From: an uncultured Clostridia bacterium
GTDB taxonomy: Bacteria; Bacillota; Clostridia; UBA1381
NCBI GenBank assembly: GCA_944392335.1
Contig: CALXWJ010000023.1
Coordinates: 1 to 35,802, forward strand
Direction of reading: 5' to 3'
Length of the DNA stretch: 35,802 nt
This document shows positions 6,960 to 30,370 of the stretch, one piece after another (the stretch's first letter is position 1; each line of letters begins with the position of its first letter). Below the pieces are notes generated by a model. The model had not been told where the DNA came from. It was given only the letters and a program-made list of their open reading frames with translations, and made no database searches. The translations under genes and the position numbers were made by a program.

Positions 6960-6987
6960 AAATCACCTGTTTTACAACAGGTGATTT
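6960..6987. repeat. Perfect 12-bp inverted repeat with TTAC loop
   Basis: AAATCACCTGTT (6960-6971) pairs perfectly with AACAGGTGATTT (6976-6987) around TTAC. No T run follows, so it is not a classical terminator. The 4-base TTAC loop is shared with the hairpin at 30311-30336, which may point to a family of small palindromic repeats. Confidence 0.6.
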
Positions 6988-7102
6988 GCAATTTATACCC
7001 CCTCATACACTATTTGGCAAAATATCGGTAGTTTGATGATGATTTGCCCCCCTTTTTTTATCAAAACTTTATTATACCACTCTTTATTGTTGTTTCTAAA
7101 TG

Positions 7103-7164
7103 TCAGTATACTATATAAAAATATCAGTATACGACTTGTAATTCGCAACATCACGATATATAAT
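7103..7164 (+). promoter_or_regulatory. Promoter and paired operator of the 7224-10250 operon
   Basis: Two direct repeats TCAGTATAC start at 7103 and 7124, exactly 21 bases (two helical turns) apart. The second lies four bases upstream of the -35 box TTGTAA (7136-7141), which is followed after 17 bases by TATAAT (7159-7164). Two repeats beside a weak -35 is the classical layout for activation by AraC-type proteins. The same arrangement occurs at 11406-11467. Confidence 0.75.
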
Positions 7165-7223: not shown

Positions 7224-7904
7224 ATGAAAATTATTGAAAGTGAAAAAAGTGAAAAATATCTTGGTTATCGGCTTTATATTCCGGATAATATGAGTGACGA
7301 ACTTCCTCTTCTGATTTACTTACACGGTGCAGGGGAGAGAGGAGTGCGCAGGGCACAATTGGAACATTTGGAACGCAATGGTGTACCGCGTATTATAAAA
7401 GAGGGCAGAGAAATAGATGCTATTGTTCTGTGTCCGCAATGTCCTGAAATGTTTGTATGGAACAATATTGTTGTTGATTTAAAAAAACTGATTGATAACA
7501 TAATTGAGCAATACCGAATAAAAAAAGACAGAATATGCATTACCGGTTCGAGTATGGGAGGATATGGTACATGGGAAATGGGCATGACATTCCCTGGTTT
7601 TTTCTCGGCAATTGCTCCTGTTAGTGGCGGAGGAATGGAATGGCGTGCTCAGAAATTGGTTAATACACCTGTCCGGGCATATCATGGTGCAGATGATGAT
7701 GCTGTAAAACCTATCAATTCAAAAATGATGGTTGATAAAATTCAAGAGGCGGGTGGCTCTGCAAAATTTTGCCTTTTACAAGGCTTTGGACATGGTGATG
7801 GTATTTATGAAGCATATAAAAATCAAAACTTGATTGAATGGATATTAAAACAGAGAAGAACAAATTTTGATATTGTTGAAGAAGTGGCGTCAAGTTGGTT
7901 TTGA
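7224..7904 (+). CDS. Alpha/beta hydrolase, esterase/peptidase-like
   Basis: This 226-residue alpha/beta hydrolase lacks a signal peptide. The oxyanion region is LPLLIYLHGAGERG. The nucleophile is Ser110 in GSSMGGYGTWE. Acid candidates lie in HGADDDAVKP (around Asp157-159) and the catalytic His is His190 in GFGHGDG. This layout matches the COG4099/PHB-depolymerase-like and CE1-like esterases that remove acyl groups from sugars, though small prolyl-oligopeptidase-like enzymes share it. It is first in an operon with a GH28-like protein and a permease. AGGAGG lies at 7209-7214 region ahead of the ATG. Its role would be de-esterifying imported oligosaccharides, by inference from context. Confidence 0.85.
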   Translation: MKIIESEKSEKYLGYRLYIPDNMSDELPLLIYLHGAGERGVRRAQLEHLERNGVPRIIKEGREIDAIVLCPQCPEMFVWNNIVVDLKKLIDNIIEQYRIKKDRICITGSSMGGYGTWEMGMTFPGFFSAIAPVSGGGMEWRAQKLVNTPVRAYHGADDDAVKPINSKMMVDKIQEAGGSAKFCLLQGFGHGDGIYEAYKNQNLIEWILKQRRTNFDIVEEVASSWF

Positions 7905-7961
7905 TAGATGAATTACGAGTCTATCAATGCAGTTTTGCTGTTGTAAAGTCAGCAAAAATGC
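7901..7961 (+). other. Intercistronic hairpins after the hydrolase gene
   Basis: TTGATAGA (7901-7908) pairs with TCTATCAA (7920-7927) across the stop codon. GCAGTTTTGCTG (7929-7940) pairs with CAGCAAAAATGC (7950-7961) with one mismatch. Neither has a T tail. They may protect or separate the mRNA segments of the operon rather than end transcription. Confidence 0.4.
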
Positions 7962-8001
7962 TTTGCTATATAAAACAAATTTTACGAAAGAAGGATTAAA
8001 A

Positions 8002-9360
8002 ATGGAGATTAAAGCTTCGATGGGGCGTTATACTGTTTACGCCAGCGAGTATTTAAAATTGGACAGCGATGTACTGTCGGGAGGAGGAACAGATGAAACA
8101 GAGATACTTCAAAGTATTTTGGACAAAGCACCGGAATGGGGAAGTTTGCATCTTATAATGGACGGAGCGGCGCTCATAAGGGGGATTGAGGTGCACTCAA
8201 ACACTACTATAGAGTGTATTAACAGTAGCTGCGGATTTTTCCTGAAAGCAGGCTCTGACGATGCAGTTATAAAAAATCATGATATTTCGGAAACAGAAAT
8301 AAAAAATGTAAATATAACTCTAAAAGGTGGAACGTATAATCAGAATTGTCTTAATCAAGGCATGACCCCTCCGACTGAAAAACAATTGCCAAAAGGGCGG
8401 GGGTGCTCGGAAATGCTTACTTGTATGAGATTTTTTGGCGTTCGCAATTTAGTTATGGATGGTGTTACAATTTGTGATCAAAAGCGTTATGCACTGCTTA
8501 TGGGAAATTGGAAAAATGTATATATGAACAACATAAATATACCGCTTCCGCATATAGTAAAAGAGACAAATCAGGACGGTCTGCATTTTCATGGACCCGG
8601 TCAGAACCTAAGACTTAAGAACATTTATGGTCGAGGCGGTGATGATTTCATAGCGATAAATACTGATGAAGGAGACAATGTTTCGTCTATACGTGATGTC
8701 CTGATAGACGGGGTTATATTGCATGATGGTGCACACCAGGCAATTCGTCTTTTATGCAGAGATAAGGGTGTACTTGAAAATGTCACAATAAAGAATGTTA
8801 TGGGAAGCGTACGATGCTGCGGTTTTTATATAAATCCGTGGTTTAACTTCGAGCACCCTGAAGCAAAAGGCGGTCTTTTTAAGAATATCTATATTGAAAA
8901 TGTCAGATTGAAACAAGCAGATAATTTATTTGAAAGAATCCAGCCATTTATATTCTGCTTGGGCGGAAATATAAGAAATATAACAATTAAAGATGTATGT
9001 GCAGAGTCAGATAGTGATGAATTCAGACTCCTTACCGTAAGAGAGGGCGGTGGATATTTAAGCCATGTATATGAAGGAATGACTCCGACTCACATAGAAG
9101 ATTTAACCGTAGACGGAGTGTACGTTACAGACGGCGGACTCGGCAATGCAAAAGAGCATTTATTTGAAATTGAAGGAAATGCAAGGGTTGACAGAATAAA
9201 ACTCAGCAATATAAGTGCACATTCGGCAAAACCGGCGGAGGCACTTATCGGTATAACTGATAAGCCTGATGTTGGAGAAATCAGACTTGAATCGGTTTAT
9301 GCGGAAAATTTTTCGGAGCTTGTACGCGGAAAATGCAGAAAATTAACGGTTAAAGAATAA
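8002..9360 (+). CDS. GH28-like parallel beta-helix protein (polygalacturonase-like)
   Basis: This 452-residue protein has the repeated beta-strand pattern of a right-handed parallel beta-helix (for example VRNLVMDGVTI, LRLKNIYGRGGDDF, IRDVLIDGVIL). GH28 active-site features are partly visible: NQDG in place of NTDG (Asp192), GDD (Asp214-215), and GAHQAIRLL where GHG and RIK normally stand (His245, Arg249). The three acids are kept, so hydrolysis of a galacturonic-acid-like or rhamnose linkage is plausible, but the substrate pocket is altered. No signal peptide is present, which suggests an intracellular oligosaccharide enzyme. The start at 8002 follows GAAGGA; an upstream in-frame ATG at 7927 lacks such a site and lies in the hairpin region. 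Confidence 0.8.
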   Translation: MEIKASMGRYTVYASEYLKLDSDVLSGGGTDETEILQSILDKAPEWGSLHLIMDGAALIRGIEVHSNTTIECINSSCGFFLKAGSDDAVIKNHDISETEIKNVNITLKGGTYNQNCLNQGMTPPTEKQLPKGRGCSEMLTCMRFFGVRNLVMDGVTICDQKRYALLMGNWKNVYMNNINIPLPHIVKETNQDGLHFHGPGQNLRLKNIYGRGGDDFIAINTDEGDNVSSIRDVLIDGVILHDGAHQAIRLLCRDKGVLENVTIKNVMGSVRCCGFYINPWFNFEHPEAKGGLFKNIYIENVRLKQADNLFERIQPFIFCLGGNIRNITIKDVCAESDSDEFRLLTVREGGGYLSHVYEGMTPTHIEDLTVDGVYVTDGGLGNAKEHLFEIEGNARVDRIKLSNISAHSAKPAEALIGITDKPDVGEIRLESVYAENFSELVRGKCRKLTVKE

Positions 9361-9377
9361 TAGAGGGTGTATATAGT

Positions 9378-10250
9378 ATGGGCTCATATATAATAATTAT
9401 TGTTGCAGATATTCTTTTGGCTGTTGGATTTGTGCTGCAAAAAGAATATGAAAATAATGCGGGTGCGAGTATGCGTTCGGGCTTAGTTTATAATTTATTT
9501 ACAGGAATATTTACGGTTGTTGCCTTTTATGTTATAAGCGGATTCAGGATAAGTTTTTCGTGGTATTCTTTCTTGATGGCGTCGGGAATGTTTATTTTTA
9601 ACTTTGCATATCTTTTGACGGGATTTAAAATTATGAAGTATGGCAATATGTCTATGTATACCATTTTCCTGATGGCAGGCGGAATGTTGGTTCCGTATAT
9701 ATGGGGTGTTGCGTTTTTGGGGGAGAAAGTCTCGACGCTGAGGATTATAGGATGCATTGTAATTGTTGTTGCTATATTTATAAGCGATTTTGATAAAAAT
9801 CAAAAGATTGATAAAAAAATATGGCTTTGCATTGCTGTGTTTTTCATGAATGGTGCGGTGAGTGTAATAAGCAAAATGCATCAGATAAACGATGTATATA
9901 AAACGGTTTCATCTGAGAATTTTGTGTTTTGGAGTGCGGTTGCAAGAACTATAGTCTGCGGAGTATCAATGCTTATTTTAAAACCGCGAAAGACAGAAAA
10001 TGTTGCAAATTTATTCTGCGGCAAAAATTGGCTGATATTTTTTGCTTCGGCAGTTGTTGGTGGGGTTTCTTATGTTTGCCAACTTAACGGTGCGGTGAAT
10101 ATTCCGGCAACGGTGCTTTATCCTCTTATAACGGGAGGAACTGTTATCTTATCGGTTGTAGCTGACAGGATTGTATTTAAGACAAAGCTTACCAAACAAC
10201 AGTACATAGGAACAGCAATGTGCTTTGTCGGGACGTGTTTGTTTTTATAA
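9378..10250 (+). CDS. DMT/EamA-type permease
   Basis: This 290-residue membrane protein has about ten hydrophobic helices in two repeated halves. It shares GGMLVPYIWG, FMNGAVSVISKMHQ and IPATVLYPLITGG with the permease at 1626-2477, marking a paralogous pair in two separate sugar operons. It starts 17 bases after the GH28-like gene and is followed by a strong terminator, so it ends the operon. It is the only transporter gene of this operon; no ABC or PTS genes are present. Uptake or export of a breakdown product is inferred. Confidence 0.85.
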   Translation: MGSYIIIIVADILLAVGFVLQKEYENNAGASMRSGLVYNLFTGIFTVVAFYVISGFRISFSWYSFLMASGMFIFNFAYLLTGFKIMKYGNMSMYTIFLMAGGMLVPYIWGVAFLGEKVSTLRIIGCIVIVVAIFISDFDKNQKIDKKIWLCIAVFFMNGAVSVISKMHQINDVYKTVSSENFVFWSAVARTIVCGVSMLILKPRKTENVANLFCGKNWLIFFASAVVGGVSYVCQLNGAVNIPATVLYPLITGGTVILSVVADRIVFKTKLTKQQYIGTAMCFVGTCLFL

Positions 10251-10310: not shown

Positions 10311-11153
10311 TTAATTAATGTATTTTATATTTTTTCTGTACTGTGACGGTGTGACGCTGTATTTTTCCTTAAATTGCTTATGAAACCATGACATATTCTC
10401 AAATCCGCAGGAAAAACAGATTTCCGTTACTGATAAATTGCTGCTGTATAGCATATTTGCGGCATATTCAAGCCTTAAATCCGCTATATACTGAGTTGGG
10501 GTGACATTGTAATATTGTTTTAAAGAACGAGCAAGATGTTCATAACTTTTCCCTGATACTTCGATCATTCTGTTTAGCCCGGCAATGAAGTTGATAGGTT
10601 TTTTCATTTTTTGATAAGCTACCTCAAGCCATATCGGAACAGCATAAGCATCTTCGGAATAATTGAAAAAGTATTGAGAAAATATCTGAAACAAAACAAT
10701 ACGAAATTCCATATGTAACGATATAATGTCTTTTTCATGACTCAGATTTAAAAGAGAATAAAATAATGAATCCTTCTTTTTTTGCGAAAGGATTGTCATG
10801 GGAGGAAAGGAAGTGTTTAAGAGAGAGGTGTATGGAAAGGCTTCCCCTAAATACTCGAATAATGCGTTAAAGTGTTGCTTTGTAAAAGCAAGATTGATAA
10901 ACTCAAAGCTATTTCCGTCGGCACTTTGATAATTATGAACATCACGGTCGCGTACAAAAAGCAAGTAACCGTCACGAATAATATTTGTCTGTGAGTTGAC
11001 CGTATGAGCAACATTGCCTTTTAAAATCAAAAAGAGCTCATAATAGTCATGATAGTGCAGTTTAAAGCGTTCAGTGTTACTTTTTACATATCTGCATAAA
11101 AATCCTGTTTGAGGGTTGGTGTGTTTTGAGGCTTTTAATAATTTTGCTTCCAT
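10311..11153 (-). CDS. AraC-family regulator, candidate activator of the flanking operons
   Basis: This 280-residue protein has an N-terminal cupin (FKLHYHDYYELFLILKG with its HYHDYYE metal/ligand-type motif, then GYLLFVRDRDVHNYQ). The C-terminal AraC domain has two helix-turn-helix units, around SYEHLARSLKQYYNVTPTQY and SVTEICFSCGFENMSWFHK, closing with SVTPSQYRK. The gene is monocistronic, with its own promoter and a shared terminator. It lies between two operons whose promoters carry the same 21-bp-spaced repeats, so it is the best local candidate to bind them. No clear Shine-Dalgarno site sits at the normal distance from the ATG; GGAGGAAAG is about 33 bases upstream. Confidence 0.9.
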   Translation of the reverse strand: MEAKLLKASKHTNPQTGFLCRYVKSNTERFKLHYHDYYELFLILKGNVAHTVNSQTNIIRDGYLLFVRDRDVHNYQSADGNSFEFINLAFTKQHFNALFEYLGEAFPYTSLLNTSFPPMTILSQKKKDSLFYSLLNLSHEKDIISLHMEFRIVLFQIFSQYFFNYSEDAYAVPIWLEVAYQKMKKPINFIAGLNRMIEVSGKSYEHLARSLKQYYNVTPTQYIADLRLEYAANMLYSSNLSVTEICFSCGFENMSWFHKQFKEKYSVTPSQYRKNIKYIN

Positions 11154-11225
11154 AAGACAGTTTTTTGTATTATAATTTTAATACTTTCCTCCGTACTGAA
11201 AAGATATTTTTTATTTGATAATGCT

Positions 11226-11254
11226 ATTATACAACAAAAATAAAGTAGTGTCAA
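11226..11254 (-). promoter_or_regulatory. Promoter of the AraC gene at 10311
   Basis: On the minus strand TTGACA (11249-11254) and TATAAT (11226-11231) are both consensus and are spaced by 17 bases. Such a promoter suggests strong constitutive expression. It leaves a leader of about 65 bases with a GGAGGAAAG word far from the ATG. Confidence 0.75.
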
Positions 11255-11405
11255 TATTTTGGCCCTAAAAAGAAAAGTTGTTTTTTGCAGGTTTTTTTGA
11301 GTAAAAGTGTTTGTTAAATCCTTAGATTTTAATGAAAATATTGGTAAATTTATCGGAGAAGTTAAAAATAAAATATTATTTGTAGCATGTGTTTTTTTGT
11401 GTATA

Positions 11406-11467
11406 TCATTATACTACACAAAAATATCATTATGCGACTTGTATTCACATACACGGTACCATATAAT
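11406..11467 (+). promoter_or_regulatory. Promoter and paired operator of the 11520-30119 operon
   Basis: TCATTATAC (11406-11414) and TCATTATGC (11427-11435) are direct repeats 21 bases apart. The sequence continues as GACTTGTA with a -35 box TTGTAT (11439-11444), a 17-base spacer and TATAAT (11462-11467). Distances are the same, base for base, as at 7103-7164, and the surrounding words are also close. This is strong evidence for one regulator of both operons. Confidence 0.78.
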
Positions 11468-11519
11468 ATAATTAAGATATTCGGATTAGTTTCCGTACTA
11501 ATGATTATGAGGTGCTTGT

Positions 11520-14516
11520 ATGAAAAAACAAAATACTGATTTCAGAGAAAAAAAGATTCAAAAAATGGTACGGCTTTTGAAAGAAAAAGCTATGATTGAT
11601 GAAAAAGATATTGATTTTGAATATATTGGGTGTGGGGAATATAAAAAAAGTAATACACCGCCTGCATTGTCGGACAATTGGAGGTTGTTCTTGAAGGGGG
11701 CTCGTTTAGAGGGCGTGGACAGGCATTTTTGGCTGCATTTGAAGATAGACGCAGTTGAAAAACAAGACGGAAAAGAACTGAGATTTTCTTTGAAAACAGG
11801 AAGAGAAGGACAGTGGGATCCAAAGAATCCGCAGTGTATAGTGTATGTAAACGGCAAAACAGAGCAAGCCTTTGACACAAATCATACATGGCTTCCTTTG
11901 GAGTTTGAAACCGACTATGATATTTATATTTATCTCTACACCGGAATGATAGGTGGATATTTTGATGTCTTACCGAGTATTCAAATCATAGATTTAGCGA
12001 TAGAGGGTCTTTTTTATGATATAAATGTACCGTATCTGTGTATGGAGGAATATAAAAAGGATGATTATAACTATATAAAAATAAGGGATTGCCTGGACAA
12101 AGCGTTGGTATGTCTGGATTTGAGAGAAATATATTCAGAAGAATTTTACGAAAGCGTCAGAAAAACATCGGAATATCTGCGTGACGAATTTTACGGTAAG
12201 TTATGCGGCGAGAATAACATATGCGTAAGCTGTATCGGGCATACGCATATTGATATTGCATGGCAGTGGACGGTTGCACAAACAAAGGAAAAGGCACAGA
12301 GGACGTTTTCAACGGTTATAAATATGATGAAAAGATATGAAGAATATTCGTTTATGTCGAGTCAGCCGCAGCTGTATCAGTATGTAAAGGAAAATGATCC
12401 TGAGTTATATGAAAAAATAAAAGAAAAGATAAAAGAGGGACGCTGGGAACCGGAGGGCGGAATGTGGATTGAAGCCGATACAAACCTTGTAAGCGGCGAA
12501 AGTCTTATACGTCAGATTATTTTCGGCAAAAGATTCATGAGGGAGGAATTTGGAAAAGACAGCAGAATTCTATGGCTTCCGGATGTATTCGGTTATAGCG
12601 GTGCATTGCCGCAGATAATGAAAAAAAGCGGAATAGATTACTTCTTTACAAGCAAAATGGCATGGAACAGAACAAATGCGATGCCAAATGATATTTTCCT
12701 TTGGGAGGGCATTGACGGCAGCAAAGTGTTTGCAAATCTTTTATGGAATTATGCTCAGCATATTACACCGGACTTTGTTCTGCAAACATGGGAAAAATAT
12801 AAGAATAAGTCGTATAACGATAACCCTGTTATGACTTTTGGATACGGTGACGGCGGCGGCGGCCCGACATATGAGATGATGGAAAATTACAGACGTCTAA
12901 AGTATGGGATCCCCGGTATGCCGAAGGTAAAATTGGACAAGGCTGAGGATTATTTTGAAAAAACCGAGGAAAAGTTTTATAAAAACTCTGAAGAGCTTTG
13001 CCGAACACCTAAGTGGGTCGGAGAGATGTATTTTGAAATGCACAGAGGCACATATACTTCGATGGCGAAGAACAAAAAGAACAACAGAATGAGCGAGTTG
13101 CTTTACTTAAAAGCGGAGGCGCTTTCTGTAGCAGATATGATTTTGTGCGGCGGTGTATATCCGGAGGAGAATCTTCGTAAAAATCAGCAGACCATATTGT
13201 TGAATCAATTCCACGATATAATTCCGGGATCTTCTATTAAGGAAGTGTATGACGTTACTGATTTGGAATATGAACGGATTTTATCGGATGCAAACAAAAT
13301 TGCAGAGGAAAAGCTGAGCAATATAAAAGCAGATATTGCAACCGAAGGGGGCATTTGGGTATATAACGCAACACCGTTTGAGGTGAGTGATTATATAAAG
13401 GTAGATGACGAGCTTTACTTTGCACAAGATATTCCCGCTCATGGCTGGAGGGTGATAGACGATAAACCTGTGAAATGGGATATAAAGGTGAGCAAGAATT
13501 GTATTGAGAATGATTGCGTAAAGGTTTTGTTTGACGAGAGCTATCATATAATTTCAATTTATGACAAAATAGAAAAACGTGAGGTTATAGCCGAAGGGGA
13601 AAAGGCAAATTGCATTGAAATTTTTGAAGATTATCCGGATAATTATGATGCATGGGAGATATGCGATTATTACAGACAAAAGATGTGGATTGCCGATGAT
13701 GTTTCAAAGGTCGCATTGCTCGAAAATGGGATAAGGGTGGAGAGAAAATACAGACATTCAAAAATAACTCAGGACATTACTGTAAGAAATGGCTCTAAAA
13801 GAATAGACTTTGCAACGACAGTTGATTGGCAAGAGGATCATGTCATGATGAAAGCGGCGTTTCCGATAGATATTCATTCACAATATGCGACATATGACAT
13901 TCAGTTCGGAAATCTTGAAAGACCGACGCATAAAAATACAAGTTGGGACGAGGTAAAATTTGAGGTATGTGCGCACAAATGGGCGGATTTATCTGAAAGC
14001 GGATTTGGTGTCAGTCTGCTAAATGACTGTAAATATGGCTATAGCATTGAAGACAATGTGATGGAAATAACTCTTTTAAAATCCGCGACATATCCCAATC
14101 CTGTAGCGGACAGGGGTATAAATACATTCACATATTCGCTCTATCCGCATACGGGAGATTACAGAAGAGGTAAAACGGTGCGTGAGGGATATATCTTGAA
14201 TCAGCCGCTTTCGGGATATCGGATAGAAAAAAATACGGGAGCAATTTCGGATTGCTACTCTATAGCAAAGAGTGATTGTGAAAATGTTGTTGTTGAAACA
14301 ATAAAAAAAGCAGAGGATGATAGTTCGGTTATTGTCAGACTGTATGAAACATATAATCAGAAGTCCGATGCACAGATAAGTGTGGGATTTGATTTCAAAG
14401 AGGTTTATTTGTGCGATATGTTGGAAAACAACTTGGAAAAAATAGAGTCGGAAAATAATGCGGTTAAAATTAAAGTTAAAAATTTTGAAATAATAACATT
14501 GAAGTTTATTATCTAA
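11520..14516 (+). CDS. GH38 alpha-mannosidase-like glycosidase
   Basis: This 998-residue protein has the family layout: an N-terminal domain, the GH38 catalytic domain, then the all-beta C-terminal region. The zinc site begins with HTHIDIAW (His241, Asp245). The nucleophile is Asp355 in LWLPDVFGYSGALPQIMKK, and NQFHDIIPGSS supplies a further His. Bacterial members hydrolyse alpha-mannosides and related sugars. No signal peptide is present, so it acts in the cytoplasm on imported oligosaccharides. It is the first gene of the large operon; GAGGTG lies at 11509-11514. The exact sugar specificity cannot be read from the sequence. Confidence 0.92.
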   Translation: MKKQNTDFREKKIQKMVRLLKEKAMIDEKDIDFEYIGCGEYKKSNTPPALSDNWRLFLKGARLEGVDRHFWLHLKIDAVEKQDGKELRFSLKTGREGQWDPKNPQCIVYVNGKTEQAFDTNHTWLPLEFETDYDIYIYLYTGMIGGYFDVLPSIQIIDLAIEGLFYDINVPYLCMEEYKKDDYNYIKIRDCLDKALVCLDLREIYSEEFYESVRKTSEYLRDEFYGKLCGENNICVSCIGHTHIDIAWQWTVAQTKEKAQRTFSTVINMMKRYEEYSFMSSQPQLYQYVKENDPELYEKIKEKIKEGRWEPEGGMWIEADTNLVSGESLIRQIIFGKRFMREEFGKDSRILWLPDVFGYSGALPQIMKKSGIDYFFTSKMAWNRTNAMPNDIFLWEGIDGSKVFANLLWNYAQHITPDFVLQTWEKYKNKSYNDNPVMTFGYGDGGGGPTYEMMENYRRLKYGIPGMPKVKLDKAEDYFEKTEEKFYKNSEELCRTPKWVGEMYFEMHRGTYTSMAKNKKNNRMSELLYLKAEALSVADMILCGGVYPEENLRKNQQTILLNQFHDIIPGSSIKEVYDVTDLEYERILSDANKIAEEKLSNIKADIATEGGIWVYNATPFEVSDYIKVDDELYFAQDIPAHGWRVIDDKPVKWDIKVSKNCIENDCVKVLFDESYHIISIYDKIEKREVIAEGEKANCIEIFEDYPDNYDAWEICDYYRQKMWIADDVSKVALLENGIRVERKYRHSKITQDITVRNGSKRIDFATTVDWQEDHVMMKAAFPIDIHSQYATYDIQFGNLERPTHKNTSWDEVKFEVCAHKWADLSESGFGVSLLNDCKYGYSIEDNVMEITLLKSATYPNPVADRGINTFTYSLYPHTGDYRRGKTVREGYILNQPLSGYRIEKNTGAISDCYSIAKSDCENVVVETIKKAEDDSSVIVRLYETYNQKSDAQISVGFDFKEVYLCDMLENNLEKIESENNAVKIKVKNFEIITLKFII

Positions 14517-14527
14517 GGAAAGGCGGG

Positions 14528-16123
14528 ATGAAAATGATAAAATTAAGCGAGAAAAAGGATGCAAAACTGTTTGGGGACACTATATTTAATTCAATTTCGG
14601 TCGGGAGTGCATATGAAATGCTTCGGCATGACGTCATGGAACACTTGCGGCAGATACAGTCTGAGCTGCACTTTAAATATTGTAGATTTCATGGGCTTTT
14701 TCATGACAATATGGCAGTTGTGAAGCGTTTGGCAAACGGAACAATAGCTTATCAGTGGCATCAGATAGACAAGCTTACCGATTATATGCTGTCAGTCGGA
14801 TTAAAACCGTTTTTTCAGTTGGGAGCTATGCCGGAAGAGCTGGCATCAAGACATGATTTTTATGCATTCGCCTGGAAAATGAATACAAGTGCACCGAGAG
14901 ATTATGATGAGTGGGGAGATCTTATTGAAAATTTTGTAAGACATATTGTGCAAAGATATGGCTTGGAAGAAGTTAAGACTTGGTATTTTGAGGTGTGGAA
15001 TGAGCCGAATGTAGGAAATGATGCGGGCGGTTTTTGGCCGAAAAGCCTCGGAATGAAAGAATACATGGAGAAGCTCTATACATATGCCGCATATGCAGTT
15101 AAGCGTGTTGATAAAGATTTGAGGGTGGGCGGACCTTCAACCGCGGGAGGCGCATATATAAGTGAGATGATAGATTATTGCGCAAAAAACGATGTGCCGA
15201 TTGATTTTATTACAACTCATGCGTATCCCTTGGGAGAGCAGTGTGAATATCGGGGTGAAAATAAATCGCCGTATAAAACAGGAGAATACTTAAAGGAACG
15301 TTTTCGTGAGGTTAAGGAAGCGGTGGAGAACTCTGTTATGCCGAAACTTGAAATACATTGGACAGAATGGAACACAATGTCTGCACCGAACGAAGAAAAA
15401 ATTATATGGCTTTGTAATAAATGTATTGATAACCTTTTTGGGGGCGCGTGTGTTGTGAGGAATATGCTCGGGGTAAGAGATTACTGTAATTCTGCGGCAT
15501 ATTGGGTCGCAAGTGATATATTCTCGGAAAACAGACAGGCACACAGCGTATTTTCTTGCACATATGGATTGGTAACTATCCGTGGAATAAATAAGGCGAC
15601 ATATAATGCGTATAAGCTTTTAAGAAAGATGCGCGGCAATGTTATGGATTGTGAAAAAGAAGGAGGTTTCGGACTCGGATGCGGAATCACTGCCGCAAGT
15701 GAAAAAGGGGTGATACGGGCAATTGCCTATAATCAACATTTTCTTGAGATTGAAAGCCAGCCGGATTGGAATGATGAGTTACAAATTCAGGTAGAAGATG
15801 ACGGAGAATATGTTATAACAAGTGCAAAAATAGAGAAATATCATGGGAGTGCATATGAGGCATGGCTCAATATGGGTTCACCAAATGATGTATCACCTAT
15901 GCAGGAGGAATATTTAAGAGCAGCAAGTACGATGAATTATCATTGCGATGTTAAAAAGGCGGAAAACGGAATTTTAAGGACGGGATTTTCCTTGAAACCC
16001 GATGAAGTAATCTATATTGAGGTGCAGAAAAAGGGAATTGAGGCAGTGCCAAGAGATATGTCACCTGCCGAGATGGAGGCATGGAATGAAAATGTAATGT
16101 ATCCGGAGCATGAGGAAATATAA
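14528..16123 (+). CDS. GH39-like glycosidase
   Basis: This 531-residue protein has a (beta/alpha)8 catalytic domain of the GH39 type (beta-xylosidase/alpha-iduronidase family). The acid/base is Glu159 in VWNEPN and the nucleophile is Glu280 in HWTEWNT; FITTHAYP lies between. A C-terminal beta domain follows, as in the family. No signal peptide is present. It starts 11 bases after the GH38 gene. ATG codons at 14528 and 14534 are both possible, with AGGAAAGGCGGG just upstream. Members hydrolyse xylosides, arabinosides or other glycosides, and the precise substrate is not clear. Confidence 0.88.
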   Translation: MKMIKLSEKKDAKLFGDTIFNSISVGSAYEMLRHDVMEHLRQIQSELHFKYCRFHGLFHDNMAVVKRLANGTIAYQWHQIDKLTDYMLSVGLKPFFQLGAMPEELASRHDFYAFAWKMNTSAPRDYDEWGDLIENFVRHIVQRYGLEEVKTWYFEVWNEPNVGNDAGGFWPKSLGMKEYMEKLYTYAAYAVKRVDKDLRVGGPSTAGGAYISEMIDYCAKNDVPIDFITTHAYPLGEQCEYRGENKSPYKTGEYLKERFREVKEAVENSVMPKLEIHWTEWNTMSAPNEEKIIWLCNKCIDNLFGGACVVRNMLGVRDYCNSAAYWVASDIFSENRQAHSVFSCTYGLVTIRGINKATYNAYKLLRKMRGNVMDCEKEGGFGLGCGITAASEKGVIRAIAYNQHFLEIESQPDWNDELQIQVEDDGEYVITSAKIEKYHGSAYEAWLNMGSPNDVSPMQEEYLRAASTMNYHCDVKKAENGILRTGFSLKPDEVIYIEVQKKGIEAVPRDMSPAEMEAWNENVMYPEHEEI

Positions 16124-16147
16124 AAAAAGAAAGGAATGATTATAAAA

Positions 16148-19100
16148 ATGAAAAACAAAAAAATATGCACATTTTTCCTTTGTATTTCGATGATAATGTC
16201 TTTTTTAACGGTTTTTGCGGAGTATAATCCGGATCCGTATACACAGGTAAGAGAAAGACCGGTGCCAAAGGGAAATCAGTATACGGTTGCGTTTATAGGA
16301 GGATCTCTTACAGCGGGAGGGGAAGAATGGATTAAACAAACCGCAGAATGTGTAAAAGCAAGGGTGAACGGAAAAGATGTTGTGACAATCAACGCAGGAA
16401 AGGGCGGCACAGGTTCCGATTACGGTGCCGCAAGATTCATGAATGATGTCGGTTCTTTTTCGCCCGATATGGTTGTTGTGGAATTTGCGGTAAATGACCG
16501 CAGAAGAGGTGAAAAAGACAGCAAGGTTTATATGGAGTCTATTGTAAGACAATGTCTGTCGCTTAAAAAAATTCCGTCGGTGTTGTTTGTTTATGCTCCG
16601 AATCCGATTGATGAATCAGACAGTCAATATGACTCTATGATAGAGCAGTTTAAATGGAAAGATGAGATTGCTAATCATTATGGCATAAAAAGCATAAACA
16701 TATACGATTATATGCAGCAGGACTTTAAATCGAATAATAAATTCGCTAATTTTGAGGCATATCTTGCAAGTATGTATAATGCATCGGGAGACGGGTTTGA
16801 TGTGCACGGCGGATATCAGAAATATGCAGAAGCTATAAAAAAAGCTTTTGATGAAGATGCCGATGCGTGTATGGCAAAACCTAAAAATGCCGGGATATAC
16901 TGTAAAGAATATGCGAATCTGGCAGATGCAAGATACAGATATATAGAATCGGACGATTCTGCAATTACATATGATGATAAATGGACGCGTTATGATGTAA
17001 ATAATAAATTTACAACCTATGACAGCAAGCTTACGATTGGCGATTATTCATATTCGTATCCATATTTTGAAAATGGTATCATGCAGACCGAAACATCAGC
17101 AACATTGAGCTTTAACAGTTCGGCAGAAGCATTCTGTTTCAATTATCCGTCAGCGACAGCGGGAAGTTCAGTGACAGTATATGTAGATAATACGGCATCG
17201 GAGCAAAAGCTTTCATGCTGGTCTGCAGCACAAGGGGTGAATTACATAAGCACGTGGTTTGAACTCCCGAAAGATGGTGCTTCACATGAAATATTGGTTG
17301 TTGTTGATGAGCCGACAGACCAAAATTATATTTTCAGATTCGGAAATATTATAGAAAGATATAAAAACAGGCAAAGTGACGATGATGGAAATAAAGATTC
17401 GGATAAACCTCAGAACGGCGGACAAAGCACAATTTCCGGAGAAATACTCGGCAAAAACGGTGCGACGCTTTATGTTTCACCTGACGGTGATGATGAAGAA
17501 AATGACGGTACATTTAATAAACCCTTTGAAACAATTCAACGTGCAAAGGAAGCAGTACGAGCTTTAAAGAATGAGGGGTTGCCGGAAGGCGGAGTCTGCG
17601 TTTATATCCGTGGAGGTGTATACAGAATTGAAAAGGGTATGACCTTTGGAGCAGAAGATTCTGGAGAAGAAGGAAAACCGATAACATATCGCCCATATCA
17701 AAATGAAAAGGTTGAGCTTATTGGAGGAATACAGCTCAGTGTATCTGATTTTAAGCGCGTGTCGGACGAGGAAGTTCTTGCGAAAATATATGACCGTGAT
17801 GCACGCAGTTGTATATATCAATATGATTTATCAAAAATCAAGGATTTCAATTATGGCAGCATATATTTCAGTAATCAGTCGGGAAACAAACCGAACGAGC
17901 TTGTTGTGGACGGTAAGATGATGACAATTGCAAGATGGCCGAATGCAACAGCGGGAGGAACGGACGTTTTTGAAAAGGTTAGCGTTGTGACGCCTCAGAT
18001 TAAGGACAAGGGATTTTCATTCACGCTTTCGGACAAAAACAGAGTAAATAACTGGAAAAATGCAAAAGATGCCGATCTGGTGGCAAACTGGAGGTACTTG
18101 TGGCAGTCATATCATGACAAAATTGATAATATAAAAAACGGTATCGTGACAACAACAATAGTTTTAGGGTCGGATGCTGTTGACGGAACGGCGAGATTTT
18201 ATATTCAGAACTTAATTGAAGAACTGGACAGACCGGGAGAATTTTATGTGGATAAAGAAAATAAAAAACTGTATTTTTATCCGCCGGCGGATTCTTCGGG
18301 AGAGTCAGAAATTTTTCTGTCAGATTTATCCGACAGTATGTTTAAGATAGACGGTGCAAATTTCCTGACGTTCAGAGGATTTACGATTCCCTGTTCAAGA
18401 GGCAGTGCATTTGAAATTAAAAAGGGCGATAACAATCTGATTGCTTATAATAACATTACAAACCTCGGAAGTATTGCTGTAAGCGTTGCGGCAGATACTT
18501 ATAATAACGGTGTGGTCGGCAATTATATTTCCATGACAGACGGCGGAATAAATCTATCGGGAGGAAATGTAAAAACTCTTACACCGGGTGGAAATTATGC
18601 AGAAAATAATGAAGTGGAAAAGTTCTCCAGAATAACAAAAACGTATACCGGCGGTATCCATGTTGGGGGATGCGGAAACAGGGTTTCACATAATGAAATA
18701 CACGACGCACTTCACTTGGGAATGCAGTTTTCGGGGAATGAAAACATAATAGAATATAATGAATTTTATGATCTTTTGCAGTCAGTGGACGATTCGGGCG
18801 GAATTTATTCCGGACGTACATGGATAAGACGCGGAAATCAGATAACGCATAATTATTTTCATGACTTCTATGGCTCATCAGGTGGTGTCGGATTAGGATG
18901 CATATATTTCGATGATAATCTTTCAGGCAACTCGGTAACAAAAAATATATTTGAAAATATTCCGGGACGCGGAATGTGGGCAGAGGCGGGAAGCGACAAC
19001 AATGTTGAAAATAATATTATGATCAATGTAGGAACGCCTATACGTTATGTTGACAGAGGAAACCCCACAACAAAACTTGCAGAGGTTGACGAATCTAACT

Positions 19101-19900
19101 ATATGGTTTCCTCCTTGAAGGAAGTACCCTATACATCAGATGTATGGCTTGCAAAATATCCGATTATGAGCGAAATTTGGAATTTGCCGGTTTACCAGCC
19201 GCACAGAGTATCTATTAAAAAGAATGTATTTGTAAATTCGGGTTCAAATGATATAAGTCCCAGCGTTATTTCACAAGGTACATTTGAAAATAACGTAAAT
19301 ATGGATAATCCGGGATTTGCGGATATAAAGAACAGAAATTACACTTTGACAGAGAACGCAAGTGTTTATTCGGAGATCCCCGGATTTGAGGATACACACT
19401 TTGAGAAGATGGGCAGATATACAGATAAGCTCAAAGAAAGAGTGAAAGATGCGGTGGTTTTGGGAATAGGGCGTGCAGGCGCTGAGAAAAACGGAGAAAT
19501 GACGCAAATAGATTCTCAGAATGACGCGGTTATGCCGATTATTATAAATAACAGAACTTTTGTGCCGGTAAGATTTATTTCAGAAAGTCTCGGCGGAGAG
19601 GTTTTGTGGAACGGGGAAACAAAAGAAATAGAAATTTCATGCGGAGCAAAGAATATCAAGATGACTGTCGGCAGCAGTACAATGGTTGTAGACGGTGCAG
19701 AGGTTACACTTGATGCAGCGCCTGTAATCAGAGAGAACAGAACACTTTTGCCTTTGAGAGCTTTGGTTGAAGCCTTAGGGAAACAGGTATTCTGGGACGA
19801 TAAAGGGCTTATTGTAATAAGTGACAATGCAGCGCTTTTTGACAGTACAGAGGACTCATATATGATAGATGAATTGTTAAGGCAAATAAATCTAAGATAA
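16148..19900 (+). CDS. Exported SGNH esterase / beta-helix (GH141-like) / stalk-domain fusion
   Basis: This protein of about 1250 residues starts with a signal peptide (MKNKK, a hydrophobic core, cleavage near VFA-E). An SGNH/GDSL esterase domain follows at about 45-245: GGSLTAGGE with the Ser, FAVNDRR with the Asn, and DVHGGYQKYA with the His. A beta-sandwich region of about 170 residues comes next. From about residue 438 to 1110 lies a right-handed beta-helix opening with LYVSPDGDDEENDGTFNKP, as in GH141-like proteins. The C-terminus has two copper-amine-oxidase-like units (NNRTFVPVRFISESLGG and ENRTLLPLRALVEALG), common as stalk or wall-binding parts in Clostridia. The start at 16148 gives AAAGGA normal spacing; the ATG at 16136 touches that site. 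It probably deacylates and cleaves a decorated glycan outside the cell. Confidence 0.82.
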   Translation: MKNKKICTFFLCISMIMSFLTVFAEYNPDPYTQVRERPVPKGNQYTVAFIGGSLTAGGEEWIKQTAECVKARVNGKDVVTINAGKGGTGSDYGAARFMNDVGSFSPDMVVVEFAVNDRRRGEKDSKVYMESIVRQCLSLKKIPSVLFVYAPNPIDESDSQYDSMIEQFKWKDEIANHYGIKSINIYDYMQQDFKSNNKFANFEAYLASMYNASGDGFDVHGGYQKYAEAIKKAFDEDADACMAKPKNAGIYCKEYANLADARYRYIESDDSAITYDDKWTRYDVNNKFTTYDSKLTIGDYSYSYPYFENGIMQTETSATLSFNSSAEAFCFNYPSATAGSSVTVYVDNTASEQKLSCWSAAQGVNYISTWFELPKDGASHEILVVVDEPTDQNYIFRFGNIIERYKNRQSDDDGNKDSDKPQNGGQSTISGEILGKNGATLYVSPDGDDEENDGTFNKPFETIQRAKEAVRALKNEGLPEGGVCVYIRGGVYRIEKGMTFGAEDSGEEGKPITYRPYQNEKVELIGGIQLSVSDFKRVSDEEVLAKIYDRDARSCIYQYDLSKIKDFNYGSIYFSNQSGNKPNELVVDGKMMTIARWPNATAGGTDVFEKVSVVTPQIKDKGFSFTLSDKNRVNNWKNAKDADLVANWRYLWQSYHDKIDNIKNGIVTTTIVLGSDAVDGTARFYIQNLIEELDRPGEFYVDKENKKLYFYPPADSSGESEIFLSDLSDSMFKIDGANFLTFRGFTIPCSRGSAFEIKKGDNNLIAYNNITNLGSIAVSVAADTYNNGVVGNYISMTDGGINLSGGNVKTLTPGGNYAENNEVEKFSRITKTYTGGIHVGGCGNRVSHNEIHDALHLGMQFSGNENIIEYNEFYDLLQSVDDSGGIYSGRTWIRRGNQITHNYFHDFYGSSGGVGLGCIYFDDNLSGNSVTKNIFENIPGRGMWAEAGSDNNVENNIMINVGTPIRYVDRGNPTTKLAEVDESNYMVSSLKEVPYTSDVWLAKYPIMSEIWNLPVYQPHRVSIKKNVFVNSGSNDISPSVISQGTFENNVNMDNPGFADIKNRNYTLTENASVYSEIPGFEDTHFEKMGRYTDKLKERVKDAVVLGIGRAGAEKNGEMTQIDSQNDAVMPIIINNRTFVPVRFISESLGGEVLWNGETKEIEISCGAKNIKMTVGSSTMVVDGAEVTLDAAPVIRENRTLLPLRALVEALGKQVFWDDKGLIVISDNAALFDSTEDSYMIDELLRQINLR

Positions 19901-19914
19901 AATAAAGATGTTTA

Positions 19915-19928
19915 CGGCGAGAGCGCCG
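19915..19928 (+). other. Small GC hairpin between operon genes
   Basis: CGGCG pairs with CGCCG around AGAG, in the 65-base gap before the AGGAGGGG site of the next gene. It has no T tail, so it may be an mRNA stability element rather than a terminator. Confidence 0.35.
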
Positions 19929-19965
19929 CAAATATAAAATTTAAAATTAATTAGGAGGGGAAACA

Positions 19966-22900
19966 ATGGTAAAAATGAAAAAAAGAGCATCTCTTATGCT
20001 CGCGCTGACTATGGCGGTAACCGCGTTGCCGTATAATGCAATGGCAGAAGAGACAGCGGAAAACATGACTCTGAAAACCTTTAATGCTACGATGAAGGTT
20101 ATAACCGTTGACTTTAACAATGTAACAACGGCAATCAGTGCAGAGGGATTGGAGGACAAAATTGCAATCACAGAGCATAAGGCTGACGGCAGCGAGGTTG
20201 CTGTGACAGATTTTACTGTCGATATCACGGCGGCAATGACGGGGACAGACTCGAGTGGAGCAGAGCTTACAACGGCGGAAGGAAATTCGATTATTATTAC
20301 TCCGGCAGCGGGAATTAACACAACGAGCCTTTACAAAGTAGAGTTTGCACCGACTATAACAGACGCAGACGCAACATCTTTGGCAACCGGCACAACAACC
20401 GGTTGGTTTAAGGTGAATGAACTGTTTTCAGATGATTTTAATGCTGAGGGTAAGTATGTAAAAGACGGTGAGACGACATATCCGTATTATTGGGATTCAA
20501 GCAATACGTATCTTTTGAGCAAATATTGGAATTATTCCAATGTCAGCAGAGTGCATATCGGTGATACGACAAACAAAAATAGTTATAAAAACTATAGTGT
20601 TATGCGATTTGTGGCCGATTCAAATATTTCAATATCCAATGAGGCAATTCCGGCAGACGAGAGAGTGGCAGACTATACGGTAGAGTATAAGTATCAGTAT
20701 CCGGAATATGCAAACAACGGTTCATTATATACAAGCATGAGAGCTAATGAAAGCGGCGCAACATATGATATATGGTCCGGCTACAGAGTACAGCTCAGAA
20801 ATAACACTGCGACATCGGCAAATCCGACAGCGCCGATTACACTTTATGCAGGGACAACCAAGCTAATATCACAGGATTATACACCTGCTGATACAACGGG
20901 ACTTGTTAATGTAAGAATGTCAGCGGTGGGCGATAATATACAGTATTATATAGATAACAACAAAATATTTGATATTACAAGCACTGCTTATCGAAATGCC
21001 GGAATGACAGGTTTTTGGGATAACAACAGCACAGCGTGGTGGAACCCGTCTTACATTGATGATGTTTCGGTTACATCTGTAACAAAGCTCGGAGATATAC
21101 CTCAGAAGGTTGAAATTGTGAGCTATAATGCCGATTCTGATACGGTATATCTTGAATTGGGAGATATAGATTTAAAATCCAATCCTATAGAAGAAACAAC
21201 CCTTGGCGGAATCAAGCTGTACGATAAAGATGGAGCGGAGATGCAGAGAAATGTTTCACTTGACGGTAAATTTATAATTGTAAAGCCACAGGAAGATTTT
21301 GAGATAAATCAGAAATATACCGTTGAAGTAAAGGGAATCACCACTCAGTACGGTACAGTTTTGAGCGACTATACAAAATCATTTAAGCTGATACAGGAAT
21401 ACAAAGAAACTTTTGATGAAAACATTGACGGCTTTAATGTACAGAATATCGGCTCATGGGATAATACGACAAAACCGGGAGATGCAATGATGAAGCTTGA
21501 AGGAACTTCCGTGTGGGTAGACTGTATATTCCCGAACACCGAAACATTTAAAAATATGGATTATACAACAGAGCTTGATATGTATGTTTACGATGTTGAT
21601 AAATTTAACGGTTTGTGCGTATATTCCAATAAAACACCGGGTTCGTCATACAACTGGATGAATGACGGTTCTTTACAGTGTGAGTTCGGTACAACCAGAA
21701 ATTTGGGTATATCGGTATCTAATACAGTAGACGGACATGATGCATCTCATAAAATTTATAATGGTGCAAAAAGCTCAAACTTTGATTTCAGTCAAAGCGG
21801 AGTGACCTATAAAATAAAAATCGTGAAGAAAAATGGCATTGGCTCATTCTATGTGAACGGTGAAAAAGAAGCATCCTTTGATTATTCGGAGTACGCACCT
21901 TTGCAGAAGGGTATTCTGGGATTCAGAGTCGGATCAAACACCGTAGTTGGTATAGATAATATTTTGTGTACATATGCGGCAGATTATGTCGATGACGGCG
22001 GAGGAGAGGAAAATCCGGAAATTGCGATAACCAAAGCGGATTTTTCGACCCCTGACGATACAGGCAAGGTGTCTGCGGAAATAAGTGTTTTGGACAACAC
22101 ATACGCACAGAACACATATACTGTTATTGCGGCAATTTATGATAAGCACGACAGGCTTATAAGTGCGAAGAGTATTCTCGAAGAAAATGCGGTGAAAGGC
22201 GAAGAAAAAGGCTATCCACTGGAGTTTGAAAATGCGTCGGATATGTCTTATGCAAAGGTGTTTATCTGGGATTCTCTCGGTACAATGAAATCTATAGGAA
22301 CAATGCGGAAAATAACCGGAATAAACAGTACAACATATTATGTTAATCCATCAGCTGACTTAATGTCAGCTGATGGAACGGCAGAACATCCGTATAAAGA
22401 TATAAATAGTGCGATTGAAAGAATATATGATGATGTGTCCTCGGGAGCTTTTGGTGTGAACTTTACGGTAAATGTCGGAGCAGGCGATATTTTCCTTGAT
22501 GATACCGTAACAATTAACGACTATAACTCTTTACTTTCAACATCAGGTACGACCATAACAATTCAGGGAAGGGGAACAGATAAAACGTTTGTCAAATCAG
22601 GCAGCGTAATTGCCGAAGGCGATATAGAAAAAGTAAAAGACCAAAATGTTTTGTCAAGGGTGCCGAGTGAAGCGAGAGATTATATATATTCTGTAGATTT
22701 GTCGGATAAAGGGTATATCGGTGATAAATCGGAAAATATAGAATTGGTTTTGAACGGAAAGGTTCAAACGGCGGCAAGATACCCAAATAGCGGATATTTA
22801 AAAACCGGTGAAGTAACAGCGGATAAAATGAGCTTTGTTTGTTCTGATGAGAGAGTAAACGCATGGCAGACGGCAGAGGATATGTATGTATACTATATGC

Positions 22901-24237
22901 CTCACTATTTTTCTTATGCATATAAGGCAAAGGCTTTGAACGGGTTGATAACTACAGAAAATAACGGCGGTTTTTTAACCGACAGAGAATATTATGTTTA
23001 TAATTTGCTTGAGGAACTGGATAGTGCAGATGAGTATTTTTATGATAAAACTAACGGCAGACTGTATTTTTACAGCAAAGATATAACGGGAAGTAAATAT
23101 GAAATATTTAATATGAATAAGAGCCTTATAGAACTGGTGTGTTGCGACAATGTGAAAATTAAGGACATGACTATCGAAAACAGCGGTGAAACTTTGGTTT
23201 ACCTAATATATACAAAAAATTCGGGATTGGAAAATTGTGTTTTGAGAAATAGTTCGAAATCAGCTTTGACCGTTTCGGATTCTTATAACTCGGGGGCATT
23301 AAATTGTGAGATTTACGATATGGGAAAAGGTGGAGTAAGTCTTTCCGGAGGTGATAGAAATACTCTTGCAAAAGGGAAGAATTACGTTAATAAATGCTCG
23401 ATTCACGACTGTCAGAGGCTGGACAGGACATATACCGCATTGGTATCTATGAGCGGCGTGGGGAATATGTGCATAAATTCCGATATATATAATTCATATC
23501 ATATGGCAATTGCAATTTACGGAAATGATTTAGAGGTGAGGAACAACAAAATCTATAATGTATGTACACAAACCGCCGACATGGGTGCGGTTTATGCAGA
23601 AGGCGATTATACTTTAAGAGGAACGGTTATTGAACACAATCTTTTTGAAAATATTCCGGCAAAGGGTGAGTTGGGAGCTTTTGCAATATATCTTGATAAC
23701 GGACTTTCCGGAGTTACGGTTAAGAATAATATTTTTAAAAATGTGCAAAGACAGGCTGTTTATGTAAACGGCGGAAGAGATAATAAGGTTATAAATAACA
23801 TTTTTGTGGATTCCGGAAGTATCGGTGCAATTTCAGACATATTTAACTGGGGAAAGGACAGCAGCGGAAACACATACAGCTATGAAAATCCTGCACCGGC
23901 AAGAACTACACTTGTAAATAAGCTTAATGCGGTTGACTATAAAAATGAACCTTATACAAAATATGAACATCTGTCGAATATCCTGGAAGATAAACCGTCA
24001 ATACCTAAATATAATGAATTTTCGGGGAATGTGTGTGTAAATGCCGGAGGACTATCAACGGCGTGGCTTAGAAATACTTCGCTGGAGACGCTTGTTTCGG
24101 ACGGCGGTTGTGAGTATTTGGTATATTCATGCAGTGAAAGCGATTTGATGGATTATGACGGAGGCGATTATACATTGTCAGATTCAAAAGCAAGTGAATT
24201 AGGATTTGATAAATTTGATAATGTATTTGGCAGATGA
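19966..24237 (+). CDS. Exported lectin-like / beta-helix (GH141-like) protein
   Basis: This 1423-residue exported protein has the signal peptide MKKRASLMLALTMAVTALP with cleavage near AMA-E. Residues about 145-375 form a concanavalin/CBM-like module (SDDFNAEGKYVK, TTYPYYWDS, TYLLSKYW, PSYIDDVSV) that recurs in the next gene. An Ig-like part and a second lectin-like domain (about 480-670) follow, and then a linker. The beta-helix runs from about 789 to the end, opening with TTYYVNPSADL and sharing LLEELDSADEYFYD with the LIEELDRPGEFYVD of the preceding gene. It is likely a glycan-binding and cleaving enzyme; GH141 members include RG-II fucosidase and xylanase. No SLH or stalk domain is present, so it may dock on a partner or be released. 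AGGAGGGG at 19953-19960 sets the start. Confidence 0.8.
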   Translation: MVKMKKRASLMLALTMAVTALPYNAMAEETAENMTLKTFNATMKVITVDFNNVTTAISAEGLEDKIAITEHKADGSEVAVTDFTVDITAAMTGTDSSGAELTTAEGNSIIITPAAGINTTSLYKVEFAPTITDADATSLATGTTTGWFKVNELFSDDFNAEGKYVKDGETTYPYYWDSSNTYLLSKYWNYSNVSRVHIGDTTNKNSYKNYSVMRFVADSNISISNEAIPADERVADYTVEYKYQYPEYANNGSLYTSMRANESGATYDIWSGYRVQLRNNTATSANPTAPITLYAGTTKLISQDYTPADTTGLVNVRMSAVGDNIQYYIDNNKIFDITSTAYRNAGMTGFWDNNSTAWWNPSYIDDVSVTSVTKLGDIPQKVEIVSYNADSDTVYLELGDIDLKSNPIEETTLGGIKLYDKDGAEMQRNVSLDGKFIIVKPQEDFEINQKYTVEVKGITTQYGTVLSDYTKSFKLIQEYKETFDENIDGFNVQNIGSWDNTTKPGDAMMKLEGTSVWVDCIFPNTETFKNMDYTTELDMYVYDVDKFNGLCVYSNKTPGSSYNWMNDGSLQCEFGTTRNLGISVSNTVDGHDASHKIYNGAKSSNFDFSQSGVTYKIKIVKKNGIGSFYVNGEKEASFDYSEYAPLQKGILGFRVGSNTVVGIDNILCTYAADYVDDGGGEENPEIAITKADFSTPDDTGKVSAEISVLDNTYAQNTYTVIAAIYDKHDRLISAKSILEENAVKGEEKGYPLEFENASDMSYAKVFIWDSLGTMKSIGTMRKITGINSTTYYVNPSADLMSADGTAEHPYKDINSAIERIYDDVSSGAFGVNFTVNVGAGDIFLDDTVTINDYNSLLSTSGTTITIQGRGTDKTFVKSGSVIAEGDIEKVKDQNVLSRVPSEARDYIYSVDLSDKGYIGDKSENIELVLNGKVQTAARYPNSGYLKTGEVTADKMSFVCSDERVNAWQTAEDMYVYYMPHYFSYAYKAKALNGLITTENNGGFLTDREYYVYNLLEELDSADEYFYDKTNGRLYFYSKDITGSKYEIFNMNKSLIELVCCDNVKIKDMTIENSGETLVYLIYTKNSGLENCVLRNSSKSALTVSDSYNSGALNCEIYDMGKGGVSLSGGDRNTLAKGKNYVNKCSIHDCQRLDRTYTALVSMSGVGNMCINSDIYNSYHMAIAIYGNDLEVRNNKIYNVCTQTADMGAVYAEGDYTLRGTVIEHNLFENIPAKGELGAFAIYLDNGLSGVTVKNNIFKNVQRQAVYVNGGRDNKVINNIFVDSGSIGAISDIFNWGKDSSGNTYSYENPAPARTTLVNKLNAVDYKNEPYTKYEHLSNILEDKPSIPKYNEFSGNVCVNAGGLSTAWLRNTSLETLVSDGGCEYLVYSCSESDLMDYDGGDYTLSDSKASELGFDKFDNVFGR

Positions 24238-24258
24238 ATTTGAGAAAGGATGAAAAAT

Positions 24259-30119: not shown

Positions 30120-30120
30120 C

Positions 30121-30341
30121 TAGGTAATTGTAAAACTGCCGTTTTACAATTAAAACGCTTAGGTAGAAATAAAAAGTTCCGGTTGATTTTAATTTTATGC
30201 CAGGTTGAAACTTTTTATTTCAGCCAAAAATGACGCACATATCGTCATTTTTGATTATAAATCAGGGGGTGCCACCCCCCCTGATAACCCCCCCTATAAG
30301 AATGGTGGCTAATTGTAAAATTTACATTTTACAATTACCTA
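30121..30341. repeat. Hairpin array with 15-bp inverted outer ends
   Basis: The outer ends TAGGTAATTGTAAAA (30121-30135) and TTTTACAATTACCTA (30327-30341) are exact inverted repeats. Inside lie consecutive perfect stems: 30126-30136 with 30141-30151; 30166-30178 with 30209-30221 (13 bp); 30225-30235 with 30243-30253; a G5/C5-rich stem 30261-30269 with 30277-30285; and 30311-30321 with 30326-30336. It could be a MITE-like element, a string of terminators/processing sites, or a structured RNA. No ORF fits it. It separates the SLH gene from the esterase gene. Confidence 0.65.
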
Positions 30342-30370
30342 TAATAAGAGAACTAAAAGGAGAACAAAAA

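What the first reader, a model, noticed from the sequence alone, without database searches (positions are those of the whole stretch)
7103..7164. Two carbohydrate operons share one AraC-type operator layout
TCAGTATAC repeats at 7103 and 7124, and TCATTATAC/TCATTATGC at 11406 and 11427, are both spaced 21 bp. Both pairs sit four bases ahead of a TTGTA(A/T) -35 box, with a 17-bp spacer and TATAAT. The match covers about 60 bp between non-homologous operons. The AraC gene at 10311-11153 lies between them, which suggests a local regulon of esterase, GH28-like, permease, GH38, GH39 and surface proteins.
Basis: partly seen in the sequence, partly recalled or inferred. Interest (0 to 1): 0.75.

Follow-up and report, generated by a model that had tools for sequence, protein, structure and literature searches.

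The report
AraC-type switch driving two sugar operons
Two neighbouring sugar-degradation operons carry the same pair of repeated DNA sites in front of their promoters, and comparison with 18 related loci indicates that these are landing sites for the AraC-type activator encoded between them: an ordinary kind of switch, but with a well-defined site sequence that I did not find described.

Summary
TCAGTATAC at 7103/7124 and TCATTATAC/TCATTATGC at 11406/11427 are 21-bp direct repeats, each pair 3 bp (not 4) ahead of a weak -35 box with a 17-bp spacer and TATAAT. Homologues of the intervening AraC protein (10311-11153) usually sit divergently beside a GH38 alpha-mannosidase gene. In 18 of 23 such loci the araC upstream region holds a related element: ATATCAnnATAC or a close variant, a second TC(A) core 21-22 bp on, and a -10 hexamer exactly 35 bp after that core (15 of 18 with at most 1 mismatch; next-best offset 3). 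The half-site motif, fixed on one set of loci, recurred upstream of araC in 6 of 12 new loci and nowhere else in them. A matrix built from other genera ranks the two window sites first and second in the window (26.9, 23.0; next 10.7). Genome-wide, the only other promoter-located full match belongs to a paralogous AraC-GH38 pair; the rest lie inside genes. This supports direct activation of both operons by the local AraC protein. In most relatives the operator overlaps the araC promoter; here it is separate and present twice. New member of a known kind; binding, inducer and activation are untested.

The parts
7100..7132 (+). Operator 1: half-sites ATGTCAGTATAC (7100-7111) and ATATCAGTATAC (7121-7132), 21 bp apart
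   Evidence: relatives-only matrix rank 2 in the window
7136..7164 (+). Promoter of operon 1: TTGTAA, 17 bp, TATAAT; -10 starts 35 bp after the proximal TCA
7224..10250 (+). Operon 1: alpha/beta-hydrolase (7224-7904), GH28-like (7927-9360), EamA transporter (9378-10250)
10311..11153 (-). AraC-family regulator, 280 aa, N-terminal AraC-binding/cupin domain and C-terminal double HTH
11221..11254 (-). araC promoter TTGACA-17-TATAAT (11254-11226); best window match to the joint operator/araC promoter of relatives, but both TCA cores changed
11403..11435 (+). Operator 2: half-sites ATATCATTATAC (11403-11414) and ATATCATTATGC (11424-11435), 21 bp apart
   Evidence: relatives-only matrix rank 1 in the window
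11439..11472 (+). Promoter(s) of operon 2: TTGTAT-17-TATAAT (11439-11467), overlapped by TTCACA-17-TATAAT (11444-11472)
11520..31360 (+). Operon 2: GH38 alpha-mannosidase, GH39, GDSL/beta-helix protein, beta-helix protein, SLH surface protein, unknown protein, GDSL-like protein (common transcript inferred from small gaps; last gene after a 110-bp gap is uncertain)

Best explanation
The repeats at 7100-7132 and 11403-11435 are operators of the AraC-type protein encoded at 10311-11153. The protein, probably as a dimer, would contact two half-sites on one face of the DNA, two helical turns apart. The proximal half-site ends 3 bp before the -35 box and its TCA core lies 35 bp upstream of the -10, so the bound protein can touch RNA polymerase and make up for the poor -35 boxes: a class II activation geometry. 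An inducing sugar, not identified, would bind the N-terminal cupin domain and switch on both operons together: operon 1 (hydrolase, GH28-like, EamA transporter) and operon 2 (GH38, GH39, surface proteins). Shown: the sites, their register, their recurrence beside homologues of this regulator and their rarity elsewhere in the genome. Inferred: binding, activation rather than repression, and the inducer.
For: Homologues of the regulator lie divergently next to GH38 in all 8 tested loci of the first set and in 6 of 12 new loci. A related operator stands upstream of araC in 18 of 23 loci. Motif fixed on the first set recurs in 6 of 12 new loci and nowhere else in them. The -10 lies at +35 from the proximal core in 15 of 18 relatives with at most 1 mismatch; next-best offset 3 of 18. 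A matrix from 16 loci of other genera ranks the two window sites first and second, 26.9 and 23.0 against 10.7. Poor -35 hexamers throughout. Genome-wide only one other promoter-located full match, at the paralogous AraC-GH38 pair. Operon 1, regulator and start of operon 2 form one conserved block in the sister species.
Against: No binding or expression data. The paralogue on contig C20 (49% identical) could bind the same sites. Half-sites alone, without the -10 term, separate operator 1 only narrowly from background (15.4 against 15.1). In relatives the second half-site overlaps the araC -35, so its conservation there has two possible causes. The relatives use 22 bp in 17 of 18 loci, the window 21. 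Operon 1 is tied to the regulator only here and in one close sister; no operator was found by GH28-like homologues in G015.
Confidence: 0.82

Rival explanations
1. The sites are AraC-type operators but are bound mainly by another AraC protein of the cell, above all the C20 paralogue, or by the neighbour at 4668-5474.
For: The genome holds many AraC-like candidates (86 in the first look). The C20 paralogue has a related operator, ATATCACAATAC with a second core 22 bp on.
Against: The 4668 gene is not in the conserved block and the motif is absent from all 12 loci around it and its homologues. The C20 paralogue has its own GH38 neighbour and its own site; the 10311 gene sits between the two operators.
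Confidence: 0.12
2. The regulator represses rather than activates: binding next to the -35 boxes hinders RNA polymerase and a sugar relieves this.
For: In relatives the same site covers the araC promoter and would be expected to repress it.
Against: The operator lies upstream of the -35 with constant spacing to -10, and the -35 boxes are weak, as expected for activation. AraC-family tandem sites upstream of promoters are read as activating in Caldicellulosiruptor (PMC8579813).
Confidence: 0.05
3. The match is only a duplicated or convergent AT-rich promoter without a regulator.
For: The region is AT-rich, and one promoter could be a copy of the other.
Against: A matrix from other genera finds both sites independently. 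The half-sites and the distance to -10 are conserved while promoter spacers and flanks differ.
Confidence: 0.02

Closest known systems
E. coli AraC at araI1-araI2 / araBAD (textbook knowledge, not tested here)
   Same: Direct-repeat half-sites 21 bp apart, proximal one at the -35, divergent regulator gene, sugar operon
   Different: Half-site sequence is unrelated by eye; no distant operator for looping was identified; here one regulator is predicted to serve two flanking operons with the same operator layout
Predicted AraC-family rhamnose regulators with 21-bp direct repeats (PMC3870299)
   Different: Different motifs and targets (L-rhamnose); half-sites were not compared letter by letter here
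AraC-family local regulators of Caldicellulosiruptor, such as PecR (PMC8579813)
   Same: Local AraC-family regulators of sugar genes with tandem sites upstream of promoter elements, read as activators
   Different: Main text has no GH38; the motifs themselves were not compared

Membership tests
AraC/XylS-family regulator (10311-11153) | C-terminal double helix-turn-helix domain | tested here: met
   HTH_18 E 1e-21 and HTH_AraC with two stretches, above cut-off
AraC/XylS-family regulator (10311-11153) | N-terminal sugar-sensing AraC-binding/cupin domain | tested here: met
   PF02311 E 3.9e-10, Cupin_2 E 5.9e-7, both above cut-off; ligand not known
AraC-type direct-repeat operator | Two direct-repeat half-sites about two helical turns apart | tested here: met
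   21 bp at both operators; 21-22 bp in relatives
AraC-type direct-repeat operator | Proximal half-site abutting or overlapping the -35 (class II position) | tested here: met
   3 bp to the -35 hexamer; -10 at constant +35 in relatives
AraC-type direct-repeat operator | Recurs beside homologues of the proposed regulator | tested here: met
   18 of 23 loci; 6 of 12 in the test set with the strict motif
AraC-type direct-repeat operator | Bound by the cognate protein, with inducer-dependent activation | not testable with these tools
   Needs footprinting and expression measurements
Araban-type DNA looping with a distant operator | Third half-site far upstream, able to pair with the proximal pair | tested here: inconclusive
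   No further motif match near either promoter; the degenerate element at 11221-11254 is the only candidate

The most novel reading that the evidence does not exclude
The ancestral AraC-GH38 module uses one operator that both represses araC and activates GH38. In this genus the operator left the araC promoter, whose remnant at 11221-11254 keeps the sigma hexamers but has lost both TCA cores; its half-sites were re-spaced from 22 to 21 bp and made alike, and it was copied to a second operon. This would uncouple autoregulation from activation and build a two-operon regulon.
Probability: 0.4. Interest if true: 0.5.

Novelty: new member of a known kind. Interest (0 to 1): 0.4.

Why it matters
It assigns a DNA code (ATATCAnnATAC, second core 21-22 bp on, -10 at +35) to a subfamily of AraC regulators tied to GH38 alpha-mannosidases across several families of one bacterial class, so regulons can be predicted from sequence. 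It also gives a compact example of an operator separated from its regulator's own promoter and used twice.

Tried and rejected
The neighbouring AraC gene 4668-5474 as regulator: rejected. The third genome hit (C65) and the weaker hits L004-L008 lie inside coding sequences; L009 is outside any ORF but has 3 mismatches. A loose pattern across 296 genomes gave scattered background of about one hit per genome and was too unspecific to use. Operators upstream of GH28-like homologues in G015: none found. Seeking relatives in the genome collection by peptide patterns returned only the sister species. I first read the conserved block in relatives as operator only; it also holds the araC sigma promoter, so its conservation is not evidence for the operator alone. 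The weight lies on the TCA cores, the +35 register and the window sites, which do not overlap an araC promoter.

Full report
Observation. Both operator-promoter stretches are present as described: half-sites 21 bp apart, 3 bp to a TTGTA(A/T) -35 box, 17-bp spacer, TATAAT. Strong identity covers about 40 bp (34/40 from 7100 and 11403), then only the -10 region; flanks and promoter spacers are unrelated. In the 3.64-Mb genome the exact pair pattern occurs three times, the third inside a coding sequence. With up to 3 mismatches, nine places appear against two for the reversed control; apart from the two operators, all but L009 (3 mismatches) lie inside open reading frames.

Surroundings. The AraC protein at 10311-11153 has a cupin-type sensor and a double HTH. 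A second AraC gene lies at 4668-5474. In the sister species G002 a block from 6986 on is 99.1% identical over the 19.9 kb compared. It holds operon 1, the AraC gene and the start of operon 2, with both operators intact. Left of 6986 the sequences are unrelated, and the 4668 gene lies on another contig.

Homologues. A search of 101 genomes gave 11 homologues besides the window gene and its sister copy, including a paralogue in the own genome (contig C20, 49% identical). In the 8 loci whose divergent neighbour was tested, it is a GH38 alpha-mannosidase in all 8; the divergent neighbours of the other three (L037-L039) were not tested. Most of these intergenic regions hold ATATCACAATAC or a variant, an A-rich stretch, and (A/G)TCATGTCAA 22 bp on. 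The motif ATRTCANNATAC, written from window and homologues together, had 8 hits in 2.6 kb of these regions and 1 in 227 kb elsewhere. That count is circular, so it was tested on 12 new loci from a class-wide profile search. Six of 12 carried the strict motif just upstream of araC on the predicted strand, and none carried it anywhere else. Several others have near variants such as ATATCACAATAA. GH38 is the adjacent divergent gene in six of the 12 and lies further downstream in two more.

Register. After lining up 18 relatives on their half-sites, a -10-like hexamer stands exactly 35 bp after the proximal core in 15 of 18 with at most 1 mismatch and 17 of 18 with at most 2. The next-best offset has 3 and 9. 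The hexamers at -35 are mostly poor. Both window sites have the same 35 bp. A matrix from 16 relatives, without window, sister or the C20 pair, scores the two window sites first and second over both strands of the window (26.9 and 23.0; next 10.7). Without the -10 term the scores are 19.3 and 15.4, then 15.1. So half-sites plus register single them out clearly; half-sites alone separate operator 1 only narrowly.

Own genome. A wider pattern allowing 21 or 22 bp gives 8 hits: the two window sites, the operator of the C20 paralogue, and five hits inside coding sequences. The predicted regulon is therefore local.

araC promoter. In 12 of 18 relatives the operator coincides with the araC promoter on the other strand, TTGAC(A/G/T)-17-TATTGT or similar, whose -10 and -35 lie within the two half-sites. 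Bound regulator would be expected to block araC while activating the divergent gene; this is inference. In the window the araC promoter (TTGACA-17-TATAAT, 11254-11226) is the best match to that joint element (16.4; next 3.9), but both TCA cores are changed (CTA and TAG), and the operator lies about 150 bp away. The matrix includes the sigma hexamers, so this score alone does not prove descent from a former operator.

Mechanism and comparison. The anatomy fits class II activation by an AraC-family protein. Direct repeats of 21-bp periodicity are reported for predicted AraC-family rhamnose regulators (PMC3870299), and upstream tandem sites suggesting activation are described in Caldicellulosiruptor (PMC8579813). 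A search for AraC together with GH38 found four papers; in the one read, the GH38 locus is listed with LacI and NagC regulators, not AraC (PMC5320581). Only open-access papers were searched, so absence of a description is weak evidence.

Limits. Binding, sign of regulation and inducer are untested. Operon 1 is tied to the regulator by its operator and by co-conservation in one close sister only. In operon 2 a second promoter register (TTCACA-17-TATAAT) overlaps the first, and in the sister species the first -10 reads TATATT.

Noticed in passing
window 20425-20980 and 24679-25234: Two neighbouring large surface-protein genes share a 560-bp stretch, about 70% identical overall with a 40-mer at 39/40, which suggests a duplicated domain.
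   Followed up: no
window 6960-6990: A perfect-looking hairpin (AAATCACCTG...CAGGTGATTT) stands at the left edge (6986) of the block shared with the sister species; the sequence to its left differs there, so operon 1, regulator and operon 2 may have moved as a unit.
   Followed up: partly
L029 (contig C20 of the same genome): A second AraC-GH38 divergent pair, 49% identical in the regulator, with the 22-bp operator overlapping its araC promoter.
   Followed up: yes
L053 (sister species, GH28-like gene): The operon-1 GH28-like gene of the sister species has one in-frame TAA in the match and may be broken or frameshifted.
   Followed up: no
window 27456-30119: An 887-residue protein of operon 2 matches no Pfam family at E 0.001.
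   Followed up: no
window 34240-35094: Transposase with integrase core (rve, HTH_21), IS3-like, near the contig end.
   Followed up: no
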